Of a stretch of DNA of 64,000 nt, positions 48,661-58,672 are shown piece by piece. A program made the position numbers and the translations under genes. The notes beneath the pieces are model-generated. The model ran no database searches, had not been told where the DNA came from, and saw only the letters and a program-made list of their open reading frames with translations. Source of the stretch: Coriobacteriaceae bacterium EMTCatB1 (GTDB lineage: Bacteria > Actinomycetota > Coriobacteriia > Anaerosomatales > Anaerosomataceae); contig BDLO01000001.1 of assembly GCA_001950395.1 (NCBI GenBank), positions 657,979-721,978 on the forward strand, given 5' to 3'. Numbering within the stretch: position 1 is the stretch's first letter; each line of letters opens with the position of its first letter.

Positions 48661-49106
48661 AGCTCGTGGCCCTCGTCTGGGGCGATCCCGCCTCCGCTCT
48701 CGTGCGGAAGCTCTCGCCCTGGGATGCCGAATTTGAACAGCAGCTTTCGGAAGTCCTTCTGATACAGCAGCAGGATCCTCACCTCGGGATACAGCTCCCG
48801 CAGACGGCGGACCTTGCGGTTCTTCTTGGTGACGAGTTTCTGGCTCATCGTCGTGAGCTCGAGGTACAGGTCGTAATCGGGCAGGTAGAAGTCGGGCGCG
48901 AACGACGCGATGACGTTGCCGCGCGAGTCCCACTCGATGGGGAACGGCGTCGGCTCGTACTCCCAGCGCACGTGGTAGAAGTCCAAGATTCGCGCGGCCA
49001 CCCGTTCGCTGGGATGCGCGAACGCCGTGCGAGCTGCTTTCTCCGACTCCGGCAGCTCGCCCTGTCGTTCCTCGTCCTCGAGCGGTGCAGCGGCCATGCG
49101 TGTCAC
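48657..49106 (-). CDS. Small PD-(D/E)xK nuclease-like protein
   Basis: The 149-residue protein has no name I can give. Residues 65-95 read SFAPDFYLPDYDLYLEL followed by a basic stretch with K90, K94 and K95. This resembles the PD-(D/E)xK core (P71-D72, E83), although the canonical ExK lysine two residues after E83 is a threonine, so K90 would have to substitute. A helical basic tail, KNRKVRRLRELYP, follows. The GTG start at 49106 overlaps the MerR stop (GTGA); ATG 49097 is possible. It lies between merR and hpt. Confidence 0.55.
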   Translation of the reverse strand: MTRMAAAPLEDEERQGELPESEKAARTAFAHPSERVAARILDFYHVRWEYEPTPFPIEWDSRGNVIASFAPDFYLPDYDLYLELTTMSQKLVTKKNRKVRRLRELYPEVRILLLYQKDFRKLLFKFGIPGRELPHESGGGIAPDEGHEL

Positions 49107-49813
49107 ATCACGTCTTCGAAGGTCCTCGACAGGGCTCGGTGAAGCAGGGCCCGTTCAAGAGTCGCAGTGAGCTCGGTGAGCTTCGCGAGCGCCTCGAGCA
49201 GCTGCTGCCTGACTTCGGGAGTCCGGCTCATGTACGCGGGCATGAGCACTTGCGCGAAGAACGCGGCTTCCCTTTCCGCGAACGTCTCGTACATCCGCAG
49301 GTGACGCGGCTCGATCCCGAACTTGCGCAGATCCCAGCAGGCGTGGGCGATAGCCACGTCGGCCTGTGAAAGCTCGTCGCCTGATTCGCCTTCCACGAAC
49401 CCGATCAGCCCGAACTCCTCCAACTCCCGGAGGAACGCCACCGGTATCCCGAGCGACTCGGGAGCCCCCGACAGCGGAACGGTCTGGGCAGACTCGAGCG
49501 GCAATCGTGCCGTCTCCGTAGTGCTGACGATGCTGGCGATGTCCGCAGGGACGCGGCCCTTGTCCAAGTCGTCCAGTCGTTCACGGATGACGGCAAGGGG
49601 CATGTAGTGCTCCTTTTGCAGCGTCAAGACAAGCTCGAGCCGGGCGACGTCAGCCTCGTGGAACTTCCGGTAGCCTCCCGCCGTCCGCTCCGGGTTGACG
49701 AGCCCCTCCTCTTCCAGGAACCGGACCTTCGAGATGGTCAGATCCGGGAAGCGCGGCTTGAGCCGCTCGACGACCTCGCCGATCGTCATGTAGTCCTTGT
49801 GAGCGGTGGGCAC
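49103..49813 (-). CDS. MerR family transcriptional regulator (Rv1828-like)
   Basis: The 236-residue protein begins with a MerR winged helix: MTIGEVVERLK, TISKVRFLEEEGLVNPERT and GGYRKFHEADVARLELVLTL. A longer effector-type region follows (about 85-230). This pattern, with KPRFPDLTISK, matches the Rv1828 type of actinobacterial regulators. GTG 49813 is chosen because AGGGGG lies 8 bp upstream; GTG 49822 would abut it. The FHA gene ends 1 bp before this start, the same FHA-MerR pairing as in mycobacteria, where gcvH is also close. Confidence 0.85.
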   Translation of the reverse strand: MPTAHKDYMTIGEVVERLKPRFPDLTISKVRFLEEEGLVNPERTAGGYRKFHEADVARLELVLTLQKEHYMPLAVIRERLDDLDKGRVPADIASIVSTTETARLPLESAQTVPLSGAPESLGIPVAFLRELEEFGLIGFVEGESGDELSQADVAIAHACWDLRKFGIEPRHLRMYETFAEREAAFFAQVLMPAYMSRTPEVRQQLLEALAKLTELTATLERALLHRALSRTFEDVM

Positions 49814-49814
49814 C

Positions 49815-50267
49815 CTACACACCCCCTCCCTCGAGGAAGAGCAGCTGGAACCGCCCGATCTGGACCAGATCGCCGTGCTTCAAAGCGGCCTTGTCGACGC
49901 GCACGCCGCCGACGTACGTCCCGTTGAGCGAGCCCACGTCTTCGATCGTCACGCCGTTTGGCCCCACCTCGATCACCGCGTGGGCCCTCGAGACCGTCAC
50001 GTCGTTCAGGAAGATGTCGCTCGCAGGGTTGCGCCCGATCGTGAGACGAGGGCTCTCCAGGTAGAAGCGCTCGCCGGCGTCAGGCCCCTTCTGGACGACC
50101 AACACCGGGGCTCGATCGGGCTCAGCAGCGACGCCCGAGGGAGTCCCCGAGGCGGCGGATCCCACGGGCTCGAACGAAGCCGTGCTCTCGTGCAGCCGCG
50201 CGCCGCACGCCGCACACGTCTTGGCGCCGCTTGGGGCTTCGGCGCCGCACGCCGGACACACCTGCAT
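49815..50267 (-). CDS. Zinc-ribbon FHA domain protein
   Basis: The 150-residue protein has an N-terminal zinc ribbon (C4, C7, C18, C21), an Ala/Pro/Ser linker, and a C-terminal FHA domain (about 55-148). The FHA phosphothreonine-binding residues are recognisable: IGRN (G78-R79), SRAH (93-96) and NGT (115-117). It should bind threonine-phosphorylated partners. The GarA-type N-terminal ETTS phosphorylation motif is not present. ATG 50267 has GGAGGTGG upstream. Confidence 0.88.
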   Translation of the reverse strand: MQVCPACGAEAPSGAKTCAACGARLHESTASFEPVGSAASGTPSGVAAEPDRAPVLVVQKGPDAGERFYLESPRLTIGRNPASDIFLNDVTVSRAHAVIEVGPNGVTIEDVGSLNGTYVGGVRVDKAALKHGDLVQIGRFQLLFLEGGGV

Positions 50268-50299
50268 CGGGACCACCTCCGAGCGCTCCTGCGCCCGCC

Positions 50300-50560
50300 T
50301 CAGTCGAGGAACCCGAACTCCCGTGTCTTGAAGGAGTGCGCTATCTCTTCCTCAAGAGCGCTCGCGACCTCGGGGTTCTCGAGCACGTGGGCGAGCTTCT
50401 CCTCGTTCAGCCGGTTCTTCACGTACGGGTCGCTGAGCACGTCTGTGAGCTTCCGGCCGTTGTGGACCTCGCGGACGATGTACTCCACCACGCGCTCTTC
50501 CACGACGTCGGCCGCAAGTTCTTCCAGGAACGCCTGGAGCTTCTCGTTCAGACTCGCCAC
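50300..50560 (-). CDS. Small helical hypothetical protein
   Basis: I do not recognise this 86-residue protein. It is charged, cysteine-free and probably all-helical (LNEKLQAFLEELAADVVEER, then HNGRKLTDVLSDPYVKNRLN, ending FKTREFGFLD). There is no membrane segment. It lies 31 bp after the RsiG-like gene and 32 bp before the FHA gene, in one direction, so all are probably cotranscribed. Confidence 0.6.
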   Translation of the reverse strand: MASLNEKLQAFLEELAADVVEERVVEYIVREVHNGRKLTDVLSDPYVKNRLNEEKLAHVLENPEVASALEEEIAHSFKTREFGFLD

Positions 50561-50591: not shown

Positions 50592-50897
50592 TCACTCCTC
50601 GTCGTCCTCTTCCTCGGTCACGTCGACCGTGGAAACACCCCTGAAGTCGCTCGCTAGGATGTCGATCAGGCGCTCGATGTCGTGGGACGACACGACGTCC
50701 TTGCCGCTGCGCCGCTCCTCTTTCAAACGCCTCACGAGCTCAGCGCGCAAGATGTCGATCTTACCGTGCAGCACGCGCCTCCGGTAGCTCACGCGCTGCT
50801 CCTCGGCGTACAGCTCGTCGAGCAAAGCGCGCAGCTCCTCGATGGACTTCTCTTCCAGATTCACGAGCGGGGTGTCCTCGCTCTTCTTCTCCGTCAT
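50592..50897 (-). CDS. RsiG-like c-di-GMP-binding anti-sigma factor candidate
   Basis: The 101-residue protein is a two-helix coiled-coil-like protein. Residues 33-48 read EQRVSYRRRVLHGKID, which fits the RsiG c-di-GMP signature E(X)3S(X)2R(X)3Q(X)3D except that Q is H44: E33, S37, R40, H44, D48. In Streptomyces, RsiG with c-di-GMP sequesters the sigma factor WhiG; single-motif homologues that dimerise are described from deeper-branching actinobacteria. The sigma partner is not in the window. ATG 50897 begins TEKKSEDTP; an upstream GTG would add six residues. An extended -10 promoter lies 34 bp upstream. Confidence 0.65.
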   Translation of the reverse strand: MTEKKSEDTPLVNLEEKSIEELRALLDELYAEEQRVSYRRRVLHGKIDILRAELVRRLKEERRSGKDVVSSHDIERLIDILASDFRGVSTVDVTEEEDDEE

Positions 50898-50930
50898 GGC
50901 CGCCCCCTCCGTCATCCTTCTCCTCAGAGC

Positions 50931-50986: not shown

Positions 50987-51760
50987 TTACCCGAGCCGCA
51001 CGCCGTACGACCCGGCGCTCCTCTCGGCTTCGTCGAGTTCAGGTTCCGAGAGCCGTCCCGGCTCGAACGTCACGCCGAGCGCCCGTTCGAACGACGCGAC
51101 CACGGCCTCGGCGATGAGCTCTATGGCTGGCGGCGTGCCGAGCGCATCTGCGAGCGTCATCGTGCTCGCCGCGAGCTGCGCTTGGGCCTCGGGATCGAGT
51201 TTGAAGATCCGCGACTCCAGCTCGACGTCACGAGAGCGCACGAACGAGCCGTGCTGAAGGCAGGCCTCCGACTGCCAGACCTGGGCGCTGCCCGAGAGCT
51301 TGGCCGCCCCAAGTGACAGGTCGGCGTGCGTCGCGTGAAGGTAGCACGCGCCCGCCCCCCTCGTTCCTCTCGGGCGCGCAGTGATCTCGGCAGCGACGCC
51401 GAGCGCCTGGTACGCGCCGGCGAGCGCGCGAGAGAACAGCCGGTAGCTCGCCACGACGCCCCGCGGGATCCCGTCCTCTACGCCGGCCACGACCGAGTAG
51501 GTGAGCTCGTCGTCGTGCAGCACGCCCCTGCCGCCCGTCGGCCGCCGCACCACGTCGGCGCCGAGCCGCCTGACCGTCTCCGCGTCGACGTCTCCCACGT
51601 CTTGGAATTTGCCGAGCGACACCGTCGGACGCCGCCACCGATACAGCCGGAGCGTGGGCGGCGCATCGCCACGTGACCGCGCCGCGAGCATCGCGGCGTC
51701 GACGGCCATGTTCCAGGCGCCGTCGCACGCCTCGTCGACGATGAGCCGCCACGCCCTCAC
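50987..51760 (-). CDS. lipoate/octanoyl transferase family protein (LipM-like)
   Basis: The 257-residue protein belongs to the biotin/lipoate A/B ligase fold. It has LGKFQDV, the hallmark [19 protein letters not shown] (72-90), a cysteine in GACYLH (C139) and K154 in [10 protein letters not shown]. The RRPTGGR form and the cysteine favour a LipM-type octanoyltransferase over a lipoate ligase. Its acceptor would be GcvH, encoded in the same run. GTG 51760 overlaps the gcvPB stop (GTGA). Confidence 0.8.
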
Positions 51761-53247
51761 TCGCTCGTGCGTGCCTCCGAAGGGGGCCTCCACGCCAAGT
51801 CGGGCTCCTTCACCGCACGCGCTTCGTCCAAACGGCGCACGGGCGTCGTGTACGGAGCGCCGTGCAGCAGATCCGGGTCCTGCTCCGCCTCTTTCGCGAT
51901 GGCAAGCATCGCGTCGACGAACGCATCGAGGGTCTCGAGCGATTCGGTCTCCGTCGGCTCGATCATGAGCGCTTCTTCCACGATGAGCGGGAAGTACACC
52001 GTGGGAGGATGGACGCCGTAGTCGAGCAGCCGCTTGGCGATGTCCAAGGTGCGCACGCCGTGCTTCTTTCGGAAGCGGGCGCCTGACGCCACGAATTCGT
52101 GCATGCACGAGCGCTCGTACGGGACTTCGAAGACGTCCTTGAGGCGTGCCATGAGGTAGTTGGCCGACACGACCGCCTGCTCCGAGACCTCCGCGAGACC
52201 GTCGCCGCCGACCCCGCGGATGTAGGCGTACGCGCGCACGAGCACCCCGAAGTTGCCAGCGAACGACCGCATCCTGCCGATCGAGCGTGCCGGTCGCGCA
52301 AGGGCGTATCCGTCGCCTTCCTGGACGACCACGGGCGTCGGGAGGAACTCCGCGAGCGTGTCTGTCACGCACACCGGCCCTGCTCCCGGGCCGCCGCCGC
52401 CGTGCGGCGTGCCGAACGTCTTGTGCAAGTTGATGTGCACCGCGTCGAAGCCCATGTCGCCCGGACGCACCTTGCCCATGATGGCGTTCAGGTTCGCGCC
52501 GTCGTAGTAGGCAAGAGCGCCTGCCTCGTGCACGAGCCGCGTGACCTCGAGGATGTTCTCATCGAACAGCCCGAGGGTGTTCGGATTCGTGAGCATGATG
52601 GCTGCCACGTCAGGGCCGAGCACGGCCTTGAGCGCCTCGACGTCCACGCCTCCGCGCTCGTCGCTCCGAACCTGGGTCACTTCGTACCCGCACATCGCGA
52701 CCGTCGCCGGGTTCGTGCCGTGCGCAGAGTCCGGGATGATCACACGCCGGCGCACGTCGCCGCGCGACTCGTGGTACGCTCGGATCACCATCAAGCCGGT
52801 GAGCTCCCCGTGCGCTCCCGCAGCCGGCTGGAGCGTCACCGCCGGCAGGCCAGAAAGCTCCGCGAGCGCTTCTTGCAGCCTGTGCATCAACCGCAGCGCC
52901 CCCTGGACGCTCTCTTCCGGCTGATACGGGTGGATCCCAGCGAACCCGTCGAGGCGGCACGCCCGTTCGCCGATGCGCGGGTTGTACTTCATGGTGCACG
53001 AGCCCAGCGGATAGAACCCGGTGTCTACCCCGAAGTTCAGGCCGGCCAGACGCTCGTAGTGGCGAGCGATCTCGACCTCGGTCACGTGCGGCAGCCTCGG
53101 CGGCTCCGCGCGCACCGCATCGCCCAACGCTGAGGCGAGATCCGTCTCGGGGACGTCGATCTCGGGCGGCACGACGCACGTCGACTCAGGCGCTCCGATC
53201 TCGAAGATGAGGCGGCCGAGGTCGCGGTCAGGACGCACTGCGCTCAC
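51757..53247 (-). CDS. gcvPB: glycine dehydrogenase (decarboxylating) subunit 2
   Basis: GcvPB with GcvPA forms the PLP-dependent P protein, which decarboxylates glycine and loads aminomethyl onto lipoyl-GcvH. The 496-residue protein has [24 protein letters not shown], and the PLP lysine K276 in [18 protein letters not shown]. The split two-subunit form is common in archaea and Gram-positive bacteria. GTG 53247 overlaps the gcvPA stop (GTGA). Confidence 0.96.
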
Positions 53248-54572
53248 AGCGACGCCACCTCCTTCACGAACGAGTCGATCTGCGCCCTCGTCCGCTTCTC
53301 GGTGGCAGCGAAGAGCACGACTCCTGACAGCCGCTCGTCGAACCGGCCAGCGTGGACGCCGGCCACGTACCCGCGCTGCAACATCGCAGCTTGCATGGCG
53401 GCGACGTCACCTTGGTACCTGAGCGCGAACTCGCGCGCGAACGACGCGGACGAGAACGGCTCGAACCGACCCGTCGCAAGCAGCGCATCGTGCAGGTAGT
53501 GCGCCTTCGCGATGCTCGCGCGCGCGATGCCTTCAAGCCCACGAGCGCCGACGGCGGAGAGGTAGACGGCAGCGGCAAGCGCGTTGAGCGAATGGTTGGA
53601 GCAGATGTTCGAGGTGGCCTTCTCACGGCGGATGTGCTGCTCGCGCGTCTGCATGGTGAGCACGAACCCCGGCTTCCCTTCAGCGTCGAGAGTGCGGCCG
53701 ACGATACGGCCCGGCATCTGCCGCAAGAACTCCGAGCGAGCGGCGAACAGCCCGAGCCCCGGACCGCCGAACGACATCGGGTTCCCGAGTGCCTGCCCCT
53801 CGCCCACCACGATGTCGGCGCCGAGAGCACCGGGCGCCTCCATGACGCCGAGCATGATCGGATCGGCTGCGACCACGGCGAGCGCGCCTGCATCGTGGGC
53901 GATCGAGCACGCAGCACGCACGTCTTCGACGCACCCGAAGAAGTTCGGCGAGGCGACCAGCACGGCCGCCGACCCTGCTGCCAGCTCGCTCAGACCGTCG
54001 AGGTCCGTGACGCCGTCACGGAATGGCGCCTCGACGACCTCGATGGTGCCGCCGCGCGCGTAGGTCCGCAGAACCTCGCGCCACTCGGGATGCACGGTCT
54101 CGCTCACGACGACGCGGTGCCGCTTGGTGACGCGCGCCGCCATCAGCGCGGCTTCCGCAAGCGCGGTCGCGCCGTCGTACACGGACGCGTTCGCGACGTC
54201 CATGCCTGTCAGGGCGCACACCATCGATTGGTACTCGTATATCGCCTGGAGCGTGCCCTGGCTCACCTCGGGCTGGTACGGCGTGTACGCAGTAAAGAAC
54301 GCCGGCTTGCTCACGACCGCATCCACGATCGCTGGGACGTAGTGGTCGTAGCAACCCGCGCCGGCGAACGAGACCAGGCCCGTCGCGTTCTCGTGCGCCA
54401 TCGCTTCGAGCTCGGCAGCGAGCTCCACTTCGCTCAGGCCGTCAGGGAGAGCGATCGGGCGGTCGAGCCGCGCTTCGGCGGGGATGGGCGCGAACAGCTC
54501 GTCTACCGAGGACACGCCGATAGCGGCGAGCATGCGTTCACGCTGCTCGCACGTCACGGGAACGAACCGCAT
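53244..54572 (-). CDS. gcvPA: glycine dehydrogenase (decarboxylating) subunit 1
   Basis: GcvPA is the other half of the P protein. The 442-residue protein starts [20 protein letters not shown] and has [48 protein letters not shown] and [18 protein letters not shown], all standard for this subunit. It is 3 bp after gcvH. Confidence 0.96.
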
Positions 54573-54575
54573 GGG

Positions 54576-54962
54576 CTACGCTTCCTCGGAGACGAAGGCC
54601 TCGTACTCGTCGGCGGTCATGAGCCCGTCGAGCGCGGCGTCTGGATCGGCGACGCGGACCTTGATCATCCAGCCGTCCTCGTAGGGGCTGGAGTTCACCA
54701 GCTCCGGAGAGTCGGCCAGCGCGTCGTTCACCTCGATGATCTCGCCTGAGACCGGCGAGAAGAGCTCTGAGACGGACTTGACGGACTCGATCTCGCCGAA
54801 CGAGTCGCCCGCAACGACCTCATCGCCGACGGATGGCAGGTCGACGTAGACGACTTCGCCCAGCTGGTCCTGCGCGTAGTCAGTGATGCCGACCGTCGCG
54901 ACATCTCCGTCGAGCCGGACCCACTCGTGCTCTCGGTCGTACCTCAGATCCGCCGGATACAT
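54576..54962 (-). CDS. gcvH: glycine cleavage system H protein
   Basis: GcvH carries the lipoyl arm of the glycine cleavage system. The 128-residue protein has the lipoylation lysine K62 in IESVKSVSELFSPVSGEI, and DREHEWVRLDGDVATVGITD at the N-terminus. Length is normal. It lies between gcvT (19 bp upstream) and gcvPA. The dihydrolipoyl dehydrogenase (L protein) is not in this window. Confidence 0.97.
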   Translation of the reverse strand: MYPADLRYDREHEWVRLDGDVATVGITDYAQDQLGEVVYVDLPSVGDEVVAGDSFGEIESVKSVSELFSPVSGEIIEVNDALADSPELVNSSPYEDGWMIKVRVADPDAALDGLMTADEYEAFVSEEA

Positions 54963-54981
54963 GCCTCGTGCTCCTTCCGCG

Positions 54982-56085
54982 TCACGACGCTGCCTTGTCG
55001 AGCGACGTCCCCTTCACGAACGGCGGCCTGACGACGACCGCCTTCGACACCTTCTTCCTGATGGCGACGCCAAGCTCCGTGCCCGGCGAAGCCAGCGCTG
55101 CCGGCACGTACGCGGTGGCGATGCCCTGCCGGAGCGTCGGCGAGAAGGTGCCGCTTGCCACCTTACCGACCTCGGTCTCGCCTTGCAACACGGGATAGCC
55201 GTGCCGTGGCACGCCTTCGTCCACCACAAGCCCGACCAGACGCTGCTTCGGTCCCACCTCCTTGATGCGAGCGATCGCCTCGCACCCGATGAAGTCTCCC
55301 TTGCCGAGCGATACCGCCCAGCCCAGACCTGCCGATATGGGATCCACACCGCGGTCCATGTCGCTGCCGTACAAGGCGTAGCCCATTTCGAGCCGAAGCG
55401 TGTCACGCGCCCCGAGCCCGCACGGCTGGACTTCAGGGAACGACAGGAGCAGCCGCCAGATCGCAACTGCGTTGCTTGCATGGCACACGATCTCGACCCC
55501 GTCCTCGCCGGTGTATCCGGTCCGCGCGAGAAGGACCGGGATGCCCCCGAGCCTCGCTTCGGCGATGCTGAAGCGGGAGGGCGGCTCGAATCCTTCGCCC
55601 ACAAGCTCCCCGATCACGCGCAGCGCCTGCGGGCCTTGCACGGCGATTAGACCGGTGCGGTCCGACTCGTCGACCGCCTCCACGCTCGCAGGCAGGTGGG
55701 ACGTGATCCAGTCCCAGTCAGCATCGTGGTTCGCCGCGTTCGCGATGACCAGGTACTCCAAGTCGCCGGTGTGGTACACGATGAGGTCGTCGATGATTCC
55801 GCCGTCCTCGTCGCACATGACGGTGTACACGGCCCTGCCGAGCTCGTCGATCTTGCCCAGGTCGTTCGTCACGATGCGCTGCAACGCGTCCTTGGCGTCG
55901 AACCCGAAGAAGCGGAACTCGCTCATGTGGCACACGTCGAACACGCCGACGCGCTGCCGCACGGCCAGGTGCTCCTCGATGATGCCTGCGTACTGCACGG
56001 GCATCTCCCACCCCGCGAACGGCACCATCCGGGCGCCGAGCGCGACGTGCTCGTCGTACAGGGGCGTGCGCTTCAGTCCGTCCAT
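54982..56085 (-). CDS. gcvT: aminomethyltransferase (glycine cleavage T protein)
   Basis: GcvT transfers the methylene group from aminomethyl-GcvH to tetrahydrofolate and releases ammonia. The 367-residue protein starts MDGLKRTPLYDEHVALGARM and has FAGWEMPVQY, TGYTGEDGVEI, GLGARDTLRLEMGYALYG and SGTFSPTLRQGIATAYVP. ATG 56085 has AAAGGAA 7 bp upstream. The gap to the preceding dacF-like gene is only 17 bp, which leaves no room for a glycine riboswitch directly in front of gcvT. Confidence 0.96.
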   Translation of the reverse strand: MDGLKRTPLYDEHVALGARMVPFAGWEMPVQYAGIIEEHLAVRQRVGVFDVCHMSEFRFFGFDAKDALQRIVTNDLGKIDELGRAVYTVMCDEDGGIIDDLIVYHTGDLEYLVIANAANHDADWDWITSHLPASVEAVDESDRTGLIAVQGPQALRVIGELVGEGFEPPSRFSIAEARLGGIPVLLARTGYTGEDGVEIVCHASNAVAIWRLLLSFPEVQPCGLGARDTLRLEMGYALYGSDMDRGVDPISAGLGWAVSLGKGDFIGCEAIARIKEVGPKQRLVGLVVDEGVPRHGYPVLQGETEVGKVASGTFSPTLRQGIATAYVPAALASPGTELGVAIRKKVSKAVVVRPPFVKGTSLDKAAS

Positions 56086-57844: not shown

Positions 57845-58672
57845 GTGAAGTACACGCGCTTCGAGAAGTTCGTCATCGTGCTGGGAGCCGCCGTCGTCGT
57901 CGCGAGCGTCATCGTGCCGCGGAATGTGGCTCCGCAGTGGCCCGAACTCGTCGCGCAAGCGCTGCTCTTCCTGACCTTCGCTGCGGCCGCGCACTGGGGC
58001 CGTAACGGGGGCTCCGTGGTCGCTACCGCATCGGCGCTCGCCTACGTCCTCACCAGAGTCCCGATGCTTGCCAGCCAGGGTCTGACGAATGACCTTGCCG
58101 GTGCACTGCTCGCCCGACTGCTCGCCTTCGCCATCGTAGGTATCGTGGGTGGCGAGGTCTTCGGGCGCATCAAGTACTTCCTCGCTCGCGTCGACGGCTC
58201 TGTCATGCTGGACGAGTACACGCAGGTCTACAACCGGAAGTACTGCTCGCAGGCGCTGCGTAATGCGATCGGGCAGTACCAGAGATACCAGACTCCCTAC
58301 TCTGTAGCGCTGCTGTCGCTCGCGCCCGCCTTGTTCGCTGAGTTGCGCCCTACACGGCAGCACTCGATCCTCAAGTCGGTGGCGAACCACATCAGGAGCG
58401 ACATCCGCCTCGTGGACGACGTCGGCTACCTCGGCGACGGACGGTTCCTCTTGATGTTCCCGAACACGCCCAAGAGCGGCGCTGAGATCGCGGCCGACCG
58501 CGTGCGCGCTGGCGTACGAGACTTGGTCGGAGCCAAGGACGAATCAGTCTCAACCACCGTCTTGAGCGTCGCAGAAGACGGCTCTGCGATCTGCGAGCTT
58601 GCACGCTCGCTTGAGCCCCAGGCGCCCCCGCGACTCGACGACGTGTGCGCTGGCGTGCAGGACGAGGGCTAG
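57845..58672 (+). CDS. Membrane protein with degenerate GGDEF domain
   Basis: The 275-residue protein has three or four transmembrane helices (about 8-24, 36-50, 58-75, 86-108), then a GGDEF-type fold (about 118-235; DEYTQVYNRKYC resembles the usual D-LTGLYNRR start). The active-site GGDEF is replaced by LGDGRF (196-201), which lacks the catalytic residues, so it should not make c-di-GMP. It may bind nucleotides or partners. GTG 57845 is 35 bp after the pilin gene. Its TAG stop shares CTAG (58669-58672) with the convergent ACT gene. Confidence 0.65.
   Translation: MKYTRFEKFVIVLGAAVVVASVIVPRNVAPQWPELVAQALLFLTFAAAAHWGRNGGSVVATASALAYVLTRVPMLASQGLTNDLAGALLARLLAFAIVGIVGGEVFGRIKYFLARVDGSVMLDEYTQVYNRKYCSQALRNAIGQYQRYQTPYSVALLSLAPALFAELRPTRQHSILKSVANHIRSDIRLVDDVGYLGDGRFLLMFPNTPKSGAEIAADRVRAGVRDLVGAKDESVSTTVLSVAEDGSAICELARSLEPQAPPRLDDVCAGVQDEG

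What the first reader, a model, noticed from the sequence alone, without database searches (positions are those of the whole stretch)
50592..50897. RsiG-like protein with an altered c-di-GMP signature
Residues 33-48 fit E(X)3S(X)2R(X)3Q(X)3D with Q changed to H. The protein carries one motif copy, as in the dimeric RsiG forms of deep actinobacteria. Its operon holds an unknown 86-residue protein, an FHA protein and a MerR regulator, not the sigma factor, so a different partner is possible.
Basis: partly seen in the sequence, partly recalled or inferred. Interest (0 to 1): 0.62.

Follow-up and report, generated by a model that had tools for sequence, protein, structure and literature searches.

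The report
c-di-GMP switch likely controlling pili
The gene encodes a small protein that very probably uses the signal molecule c-di-GMP to hold back a sigma factor (WhiG) encoded elsewhere in the genome, and that sigma factor very probably switches on the type IV pilus; this is a known kind of switch, not previously described in this group of subsurface bacteria.

Summary
Window 50592-50915(-) encodes a single-motif RsiG (Pfam RsiG 67.6 bits, cut-off 27; also matches R. radiotolerans and Streptomyces RsiG structures). The "altered" signature is not unusual: His replaces Gln in 62/62 scored RsiG loci of this order, and published work shows a His-type single-motif RsiG (Conexibacter) binds c-di-GMP. 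The "different partner" idea fails: the genome carries a WhiG ortholog about 74 kb away (above NCBIfam's WhiG cut-off, three c-di-GMP-contacting residues conserved) and 12 GGDEF genes, and the structurally solved Rubrobacter RsiG lies in the same rsiG-FHA-ftsR neighbourhood. RsiG and WhiG co-occur across 396 phylum genomes (233 both, 139 neither, 12+12 discordant). No flagellin was found. In 35/35 genomes of the order with a readable pilC-pilA gap, a WhiG-type promoter (TAAAG-N14/15-GCCGATAM) lies 58-77 nt before pilA. Best reading: (RsiG)2-(c-di-GMP)2-WhiG switch over type IV pili, as in Rubrobacter, in Anaerosomatales. Binding and regulation are inferred, not assayed. The 86-residue neighbour is a conserved, unannotated helical family; it is absent in Rubrobacter and Solirubrobacter, so it is not an obligatory partner.

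The parts
50592..50915 (-). rsiG: single-motif RsiG anti-sigma factor (107 aa; 101 aa if it starts at the inner ATG at 50897)
   Evidence: Pfam PF22802 67.6 bits; PDB RsiG matches; one copy in the genome; 40/41 relatives
50754..50801 (-). c-di-GMP signature E39-S43-R46-H50-D54 (107-aa numbering)
   Evidence: sequence; alignment A2 with E39, S43, R46, D54 invariant in 35 sequences and H50 in at least 90%
50300..50560 (-). p86: conserved 86-residue helical protein of unknown function
   Evidence: 39-sequence alignment with invariant EER, G, Y; no Pfam, NCBIfam, PHROG or PDB family; AF2 all-helical, pLDDT 84
49815..50276 (-). FHA protein with N-terminal zinc ribbon, OdhI/GarA-like
   Evidence: Pfam FHA 72.4 bits; NCBIfam OdhI 115.5 bits, below the cut-off of 200; follows rsiG in 80/80 loci
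49103..49813 (-). ftsR: MerR-type regulator FtsR (alternative start at 49822)
   Evidence: NCBIfam NF050798 FtsR 215.5 bits, cut-off 150

Best explanation
The protein is a single-motif RsiG. As in Rubrobacter, two copies form an antiparallel coiled coil that binds an intercalated c-di-GMP dimer through the E-S-R-H-D motif of each helix. In that armed state it sequesters the WhiG-type sigma factor encoded at genome position C1:634189-634980. When c-di-GMP falls, WhiG is released and transcribes pilA (and a few other surface genes) from flagellar-type promoters, so the switch sets type IV pilus production. Shown here: family membership, the conserved motif, the WhiG ortholog with its c-di-GMP contacts, diguanylate cyclase genes, co-occurrence of the pair, and the conserved WhiG-type promoter before pilA. 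Inferred from the solved Rubrobacter and Streptomyces complexes: dimerisation, c-di-GMP binding, sequestration, direction of the effect.
For: RsiG. His variant normal and functional: and PMC8325347. WhiG: 315 bits to S. venezuelae WhiG versus 182 to E. coli FliA; above the NCBIfam WhiG equivalog cut-off, 370 versus 343; K37/G41/R42, aligned to the c-di-GMP contacts K57/G61/R62 of Sv WhiG, in 30/30 orthologs. 12 GGDEF matches, intact GG[DE]EF in 6 of the 8 read. Pair co-occurrence 233 both, 139 neither, 12+12 discordant in 396 genomes. No flagellin in 41 genomes. pilC-pilA gap: 33/35 with at most 2 mismatches to TAAA-N14/15/16-GCCGATAA versus 0.3 expected, reversed-pattern control at best 3; information content 1.8 and 1.65 bits in the -35 and -10 versus 0.24 in the spacer, so the elements are kept while the spacer drifts. 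In this genome the only two sites with at most 1 mismatch are both intergenic, 54 nt before pilA and 30 nt before a small secreted protein; 17 of the other 18 lie inside genes.
Against: No binding, two-hybrid or transcription data. rsiG and whiG are unlinked, so the pairing rests on homology, co-occurrence and elimination (whiG is the only flagellar-clade sigma gene among five sigma-region-4 matches). The 35 pilA promoters come from related genomes and are not independent. The AF2 job gives only a monomer helix and cannot test the dimer. Phosphodiesterases were not searched.
Confidence: 0.86

Rival explanations
1. RsiG here has moved to another partner (the 86-residue protein, the FHA protein or FtsR) and no longer controls WhiG.
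For: It is encoded directly before these genes, and the rsiG-FHA-ftsR order is kept in related loci.
Against: The same neighbourhood surrounds the R. radiotolerans RsiG that binds WhiG. p86 is missing in Rubrobacter, Solirubrobacter and some members of this order. WhiG is found in all 41 genomes of the order searched or in all but one of the more fragmented ones at full strength, and keeps its c-di-GMP contacts.
Confidence: 0.05
2. RsiG controls WhiG, and p86 is an additional modulator of the switch (for instance a co-factor or antagonist of RsiG) that ties it to the FHA/FtsR genes.
For: p86 is strongly conserved (invariant E21-E22-R23, G35, Y46) and lies between rsiG and the FHA gene in most Coriobacteriia and several other deep lineages.
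Against: No direct evidence of any contact; no known fold match; absent in lineages where the switch is known to work.
Confidence: 0.2
3. A degenerate RsiG relative that no longer binds c-di-GMP because of the His.
For: The Gln of the model proteins is replaced (sequence).
Against: The other four motif positions are invariant and His is kept in the aligned relatives outside Rubrobacter. His is the usual residue in single-motif RsiGs outside Rubrobacter, and C. woesei RsiG with His binds c-di-GMP (PMC8325347).
Confidence: 0.03

Closest known systems
Rubrobacter radiotolerans (RsiG)2-(c-di-GMP)2-WhiG switch (PDB 7lq2, 7lq3, 7lq4; PMC8325347)
   Same: Single-motif RsiG; WhiG encoded elsewhere; rsiG-FHA-ftsR neighbourhood; WhiG-type promoters in the type IV pilus cluster
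   Different: His instead of Gln in the motif; p86 gene between rsiG and the FHA gene; order Anaerosomatales (Coriobacteriia) instead of Rubrobacteria
Conexibacter woesei RsiG-WhiG (PMC8325347)
   Same: Single motif with His; c-di-GMP binding measured for the C. woesei protein; a Conexibacter relative (L069) has the same rsiG-FHA-ftsR neighbourhood
   Different: Other class (Thermoleophilia); no p86 in that relative
Streptomyces venezuelae RsiG-WhiG (PDB 6pfj)
   Same: Same motif and sigma partner family
   Different: Twin-motif monomer, controls sporulation; Streptomyces-type loci have no FHA/ftsR match next to rsiG

Membership tests
RsiG (Pfam PF22802) | Profile match above the curated cut-off | tested here: met
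   67.6 bits versus 27
RsiG (Pfam PF22802) | E(X)3S(X)2R(X)3[Q/H](X)3D signature in a long helix | tested here: met
   residues 39-54; predicted helix 25-69
single-motif RsiG | Only one motif copy, short protein | tested here: met
   107 aa, one hit
single-motif RsiG | Antiparallel homodimer | not testable with these tools
   only single chains can be predicted
RsiG-WhiG switch | WhiG-type sigma factor in the same genome | tested here: met
   C1:634189-634980
RsiG-WhiG switch | WhiG residues that contact c-di-GMP (K, G, R of sigma2) | tested here: met
   K37/G41/R42 in 30/30 orthologs
RsiG-WhiG switch | Genes to make c-di-GMP in the same genome | tested here: met
   12 GGDEF matches, 6 of 8 read with GG[DE]EF; c-di-GMP itself not measured
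RsiG-WhiG switch | c-di-GMP-dependent binding of WhiG by RsiG | not testable with these tools
   needs protein
Rubrobacter-type type IV pilus control | WhiG-type promoters in the type IV pilus cluster | tested here: met
   35/35 pilC-pilA gaps, 33 with at most 2 mismatches

The most novel reading that the evidence does not exclude
The conserved 86-residue protein is a new component of the c-di-GMP/RsiG/WhiG switch and couples pilus control to the FHA (OdhI/GarA-like) and FtsR regulators encoded in the same operon.
Probability: 0.15. Interest if true: 0.65.

Novelty: new member of a known kind. Interest (0 to 1): 0.45.

Why it matters
The published survey found single-motif RsiGs only in Rubrobacteria and Thermoleophilia; here they are found in nearly all sampled genomes (40/41) of one order of Coriobacteriia, together with WhiG and a conserved WhiG-type pilA promoter. 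Cultured Anaerosomatales are non-motile and bear pili-like appendages, and Parvivirga hydrogeniphila makes them only with ferrihydrite, not with soluble Fe(III)-citrate (PMC9686372). The switch is therefore a concrete candidate for how these cells decide to make pili on minerals. The rsiG-FHA-ftsR linkage, shared by several deep lineages and by Rubrobacter, is not mentioned in the main text of the RsiG evolution paper and deserves an explanation.

Tried and rejected
NCBIfam has no RsiG model that rings for any RsiG tried, so only Pfam was informative. Fold search with the p86 model: no match with E below 3. Pfam hits for p86 (YbeY, LIP, DUF2399, STI1-HOP) are all weak and scattered among members: treated as chance. 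Promoter hits with 2 mismatches in the own genome lie inside genes in 17 of 18 cases and were treated as background. A fold search with the RsiG model was not run, because a single long helix matches too much.

Full report
WHAT IS THERE. The ORF at window 50592-50915(-) encodes 107 residues (101 if the inner ATG at 50897 is used). It matches Pfam RsiG at 67.6 bits, cut-off 27, and in the PDB it finds the RsiG chains of Rubrobacter radiotolerans (7lq2, 7lq3, 7lq4) and Streptomyces (6pfj), E about 4e-10. The signature E39-S43-R46-H50-D54 is present once. It is the only match among 67 called window proteins, with 0.01 expected from shuffling. The genome (1.84 Mb, one contig, window at C1:657979-721978) has no second RsiG.

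THE HISTIDINE. The RsiG evolution paper (PMC8325347) states that His is frequent at this position in the first motif, that His can make the same stacking contact, and that the His-type single-motif RsiG of Conexibacter woesei binds c-di-GMP (Kd 25 uM alone, 1.7 uM with WhiG). In the loci fetched here, His occurs in 62 of 62 scored loci of this order (3 of 65 did not fit the search expression) and 43 of 44 other deep actinobacterial loci; Gln occurs in Rubrobacter-like loci such as L244 and L245 and in 18 of 19 Streptomyces-type loci. The residue is the norm, not an oddity.

THE PARTNER. The genome encodes a 264-residue sigma factor at C1:634189-634980, about 74 kb from rsiG. It scores 315 bits against S. 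venezuelae WhiG and 182 against E. coli FliA, passes the NCBIfam WhiG equivalog cut-off (370 versus 343), and keeps K37, G41 and R42, which align with the Sv WhiG residues K57, G61 and R62 that touch c-di-GMP. These three are kept in 30 of 30 orthologs read. The other sigma factors of the genome look like an RpoD, a SigB/F-type and two ECF-type proteins. There are 12 GGDEF matches. In 396 genomes of the phylum, RsiG and WhiG (at E <= 1e-55) are both present in 233, both absent in 139, and discordant in 24; several RsiG-only cases belong to family f31, where WhiG similarity lies near the threshold. All 20 listed class-mates from other orders lack both.

THE OPERON. In 80 of 80 loci the FHA gene follows rsiG, and ftsR follows in 78, the other two being close to a contig end. 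These loci include Coriobacteriia, Aquicultor, Solincola, Solirubrobacter and Conexibacter. They are the best 80 of 272 candidate loci by similarity, so this is not an unbiased sample. Locus L245 encodes a protein 117/118 identical to the crystallised R. radiotolerans RsiG, and it too is followed by FHA and ftsR. So a sigma-less operon is the ordinary setting of single-motif RsiGs and is no argument for a different partner. p86 is present in most Coriobacteriia but was not detected in L024, L042 and L118, in Solirubrobacter or in Rubrobacter, so it is not required for the switch. It is a conserved all-helical protein without a database family.

THE TARGET. None of 41 genomes of the order has a flagellin, so this WhiG is unlikely to drive flagella. 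The genome has a type IV pilus cluster at C1:858-877 kb. One of the two best matches in the genome to the flagellar-type promoter, TAAAGTGGCGTGCAGTAATGCCGATAC at C1:866771-866797(-), lies between pilC and pilA, 54 nt before the pilA start. I then read the pilC-pilA gap in the 35 genomes where it could be read. Every one has its best match 58-77 nt before the pilA ATG used there. 33 of 35 have at most 2 mismatches (7 have none), against 0.3 expected in shuffled gaps; the reversed pattern never does better than 3. Across 29 gaps with a 15-base spacer, the -35 and -10 carry 1.8 and 1.65 bits per column and the spacer 0.24, so the elements are kept while the spacer drifts. Relatives are not independent, so the count must not be read as 35 separate events. 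The second site with one mismatch lies 30 nt before a small secreted protein (C1:1227207); in two relatives perfect or near-perfect sites lie before putative multihaem cytochrome genes.

MECHANISM. Inferred by homology with the Rubrobacter complex: dimeric RsiG armed by a c-di-GMP dimer holds WhiG; falling c-di-GMP frees WhiG, which transcribes pilA. The identification of the order rests on relatives titled Anaerosomatales; 1.84 Mb and 67% GC fit Parvivirga (1.84 Mb, 67.65%; PMC9686372), but the species name is not established here. Cultured members are non-motile with pili-like appendages, and P. hydrogeniphila makes them only with ferrihydrite. A link between that response and this switch is a hypothesis.

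VERDICT. A well-supported new member of a known kind of switch, in a lineage where it was not described, with a strong prediction of its target.

Noticed in passing
window 50300-50560 (-): p86 is a strongly conserved 86-residue all-helical family (invariant E21, E22, R23, G35, Y46) with no Pfam, NCBIfam, PHROG or PDB family, usually between rsiG and the FHA gene.
   Followed up: partly
window 50987-56085 (-): A lipoate-ligase-like ORF and the glycine cleavage genes (two P subunits, H, T) lie just upstream of rsiG on the same strand; the linkage is kept in the order. A paper on the order proposes a reductive glycine pathway (PMC9686372).
   Followed up: no
window 58205-58534 (+): A weak, partial GGDEF match (33.9 bits) inside the window, about 7 kb from rsiG.
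   Followed up: no
genome C1:1226487-1227503 (L188): Two small secreted proteins of unknown function each preceded by a WhiG-type promoter-like site (2 and 1 mismatches), next to a LytTR-like response regulator.
   Followed up: partly
L199 and L202, position 1501: In two relatives a WhiG-type promoter-like site (0 and 1 mismatches) precedes a gene for a membrane-anchored protein with several CxxCH haem motifs, which could link the switch to electron transfer.
   Followed up: partly
genome C1:635000-635587 (L125): whiG is followed by a CheY-like response regulator gene and then rpsB-tsf.
   Followed up: no
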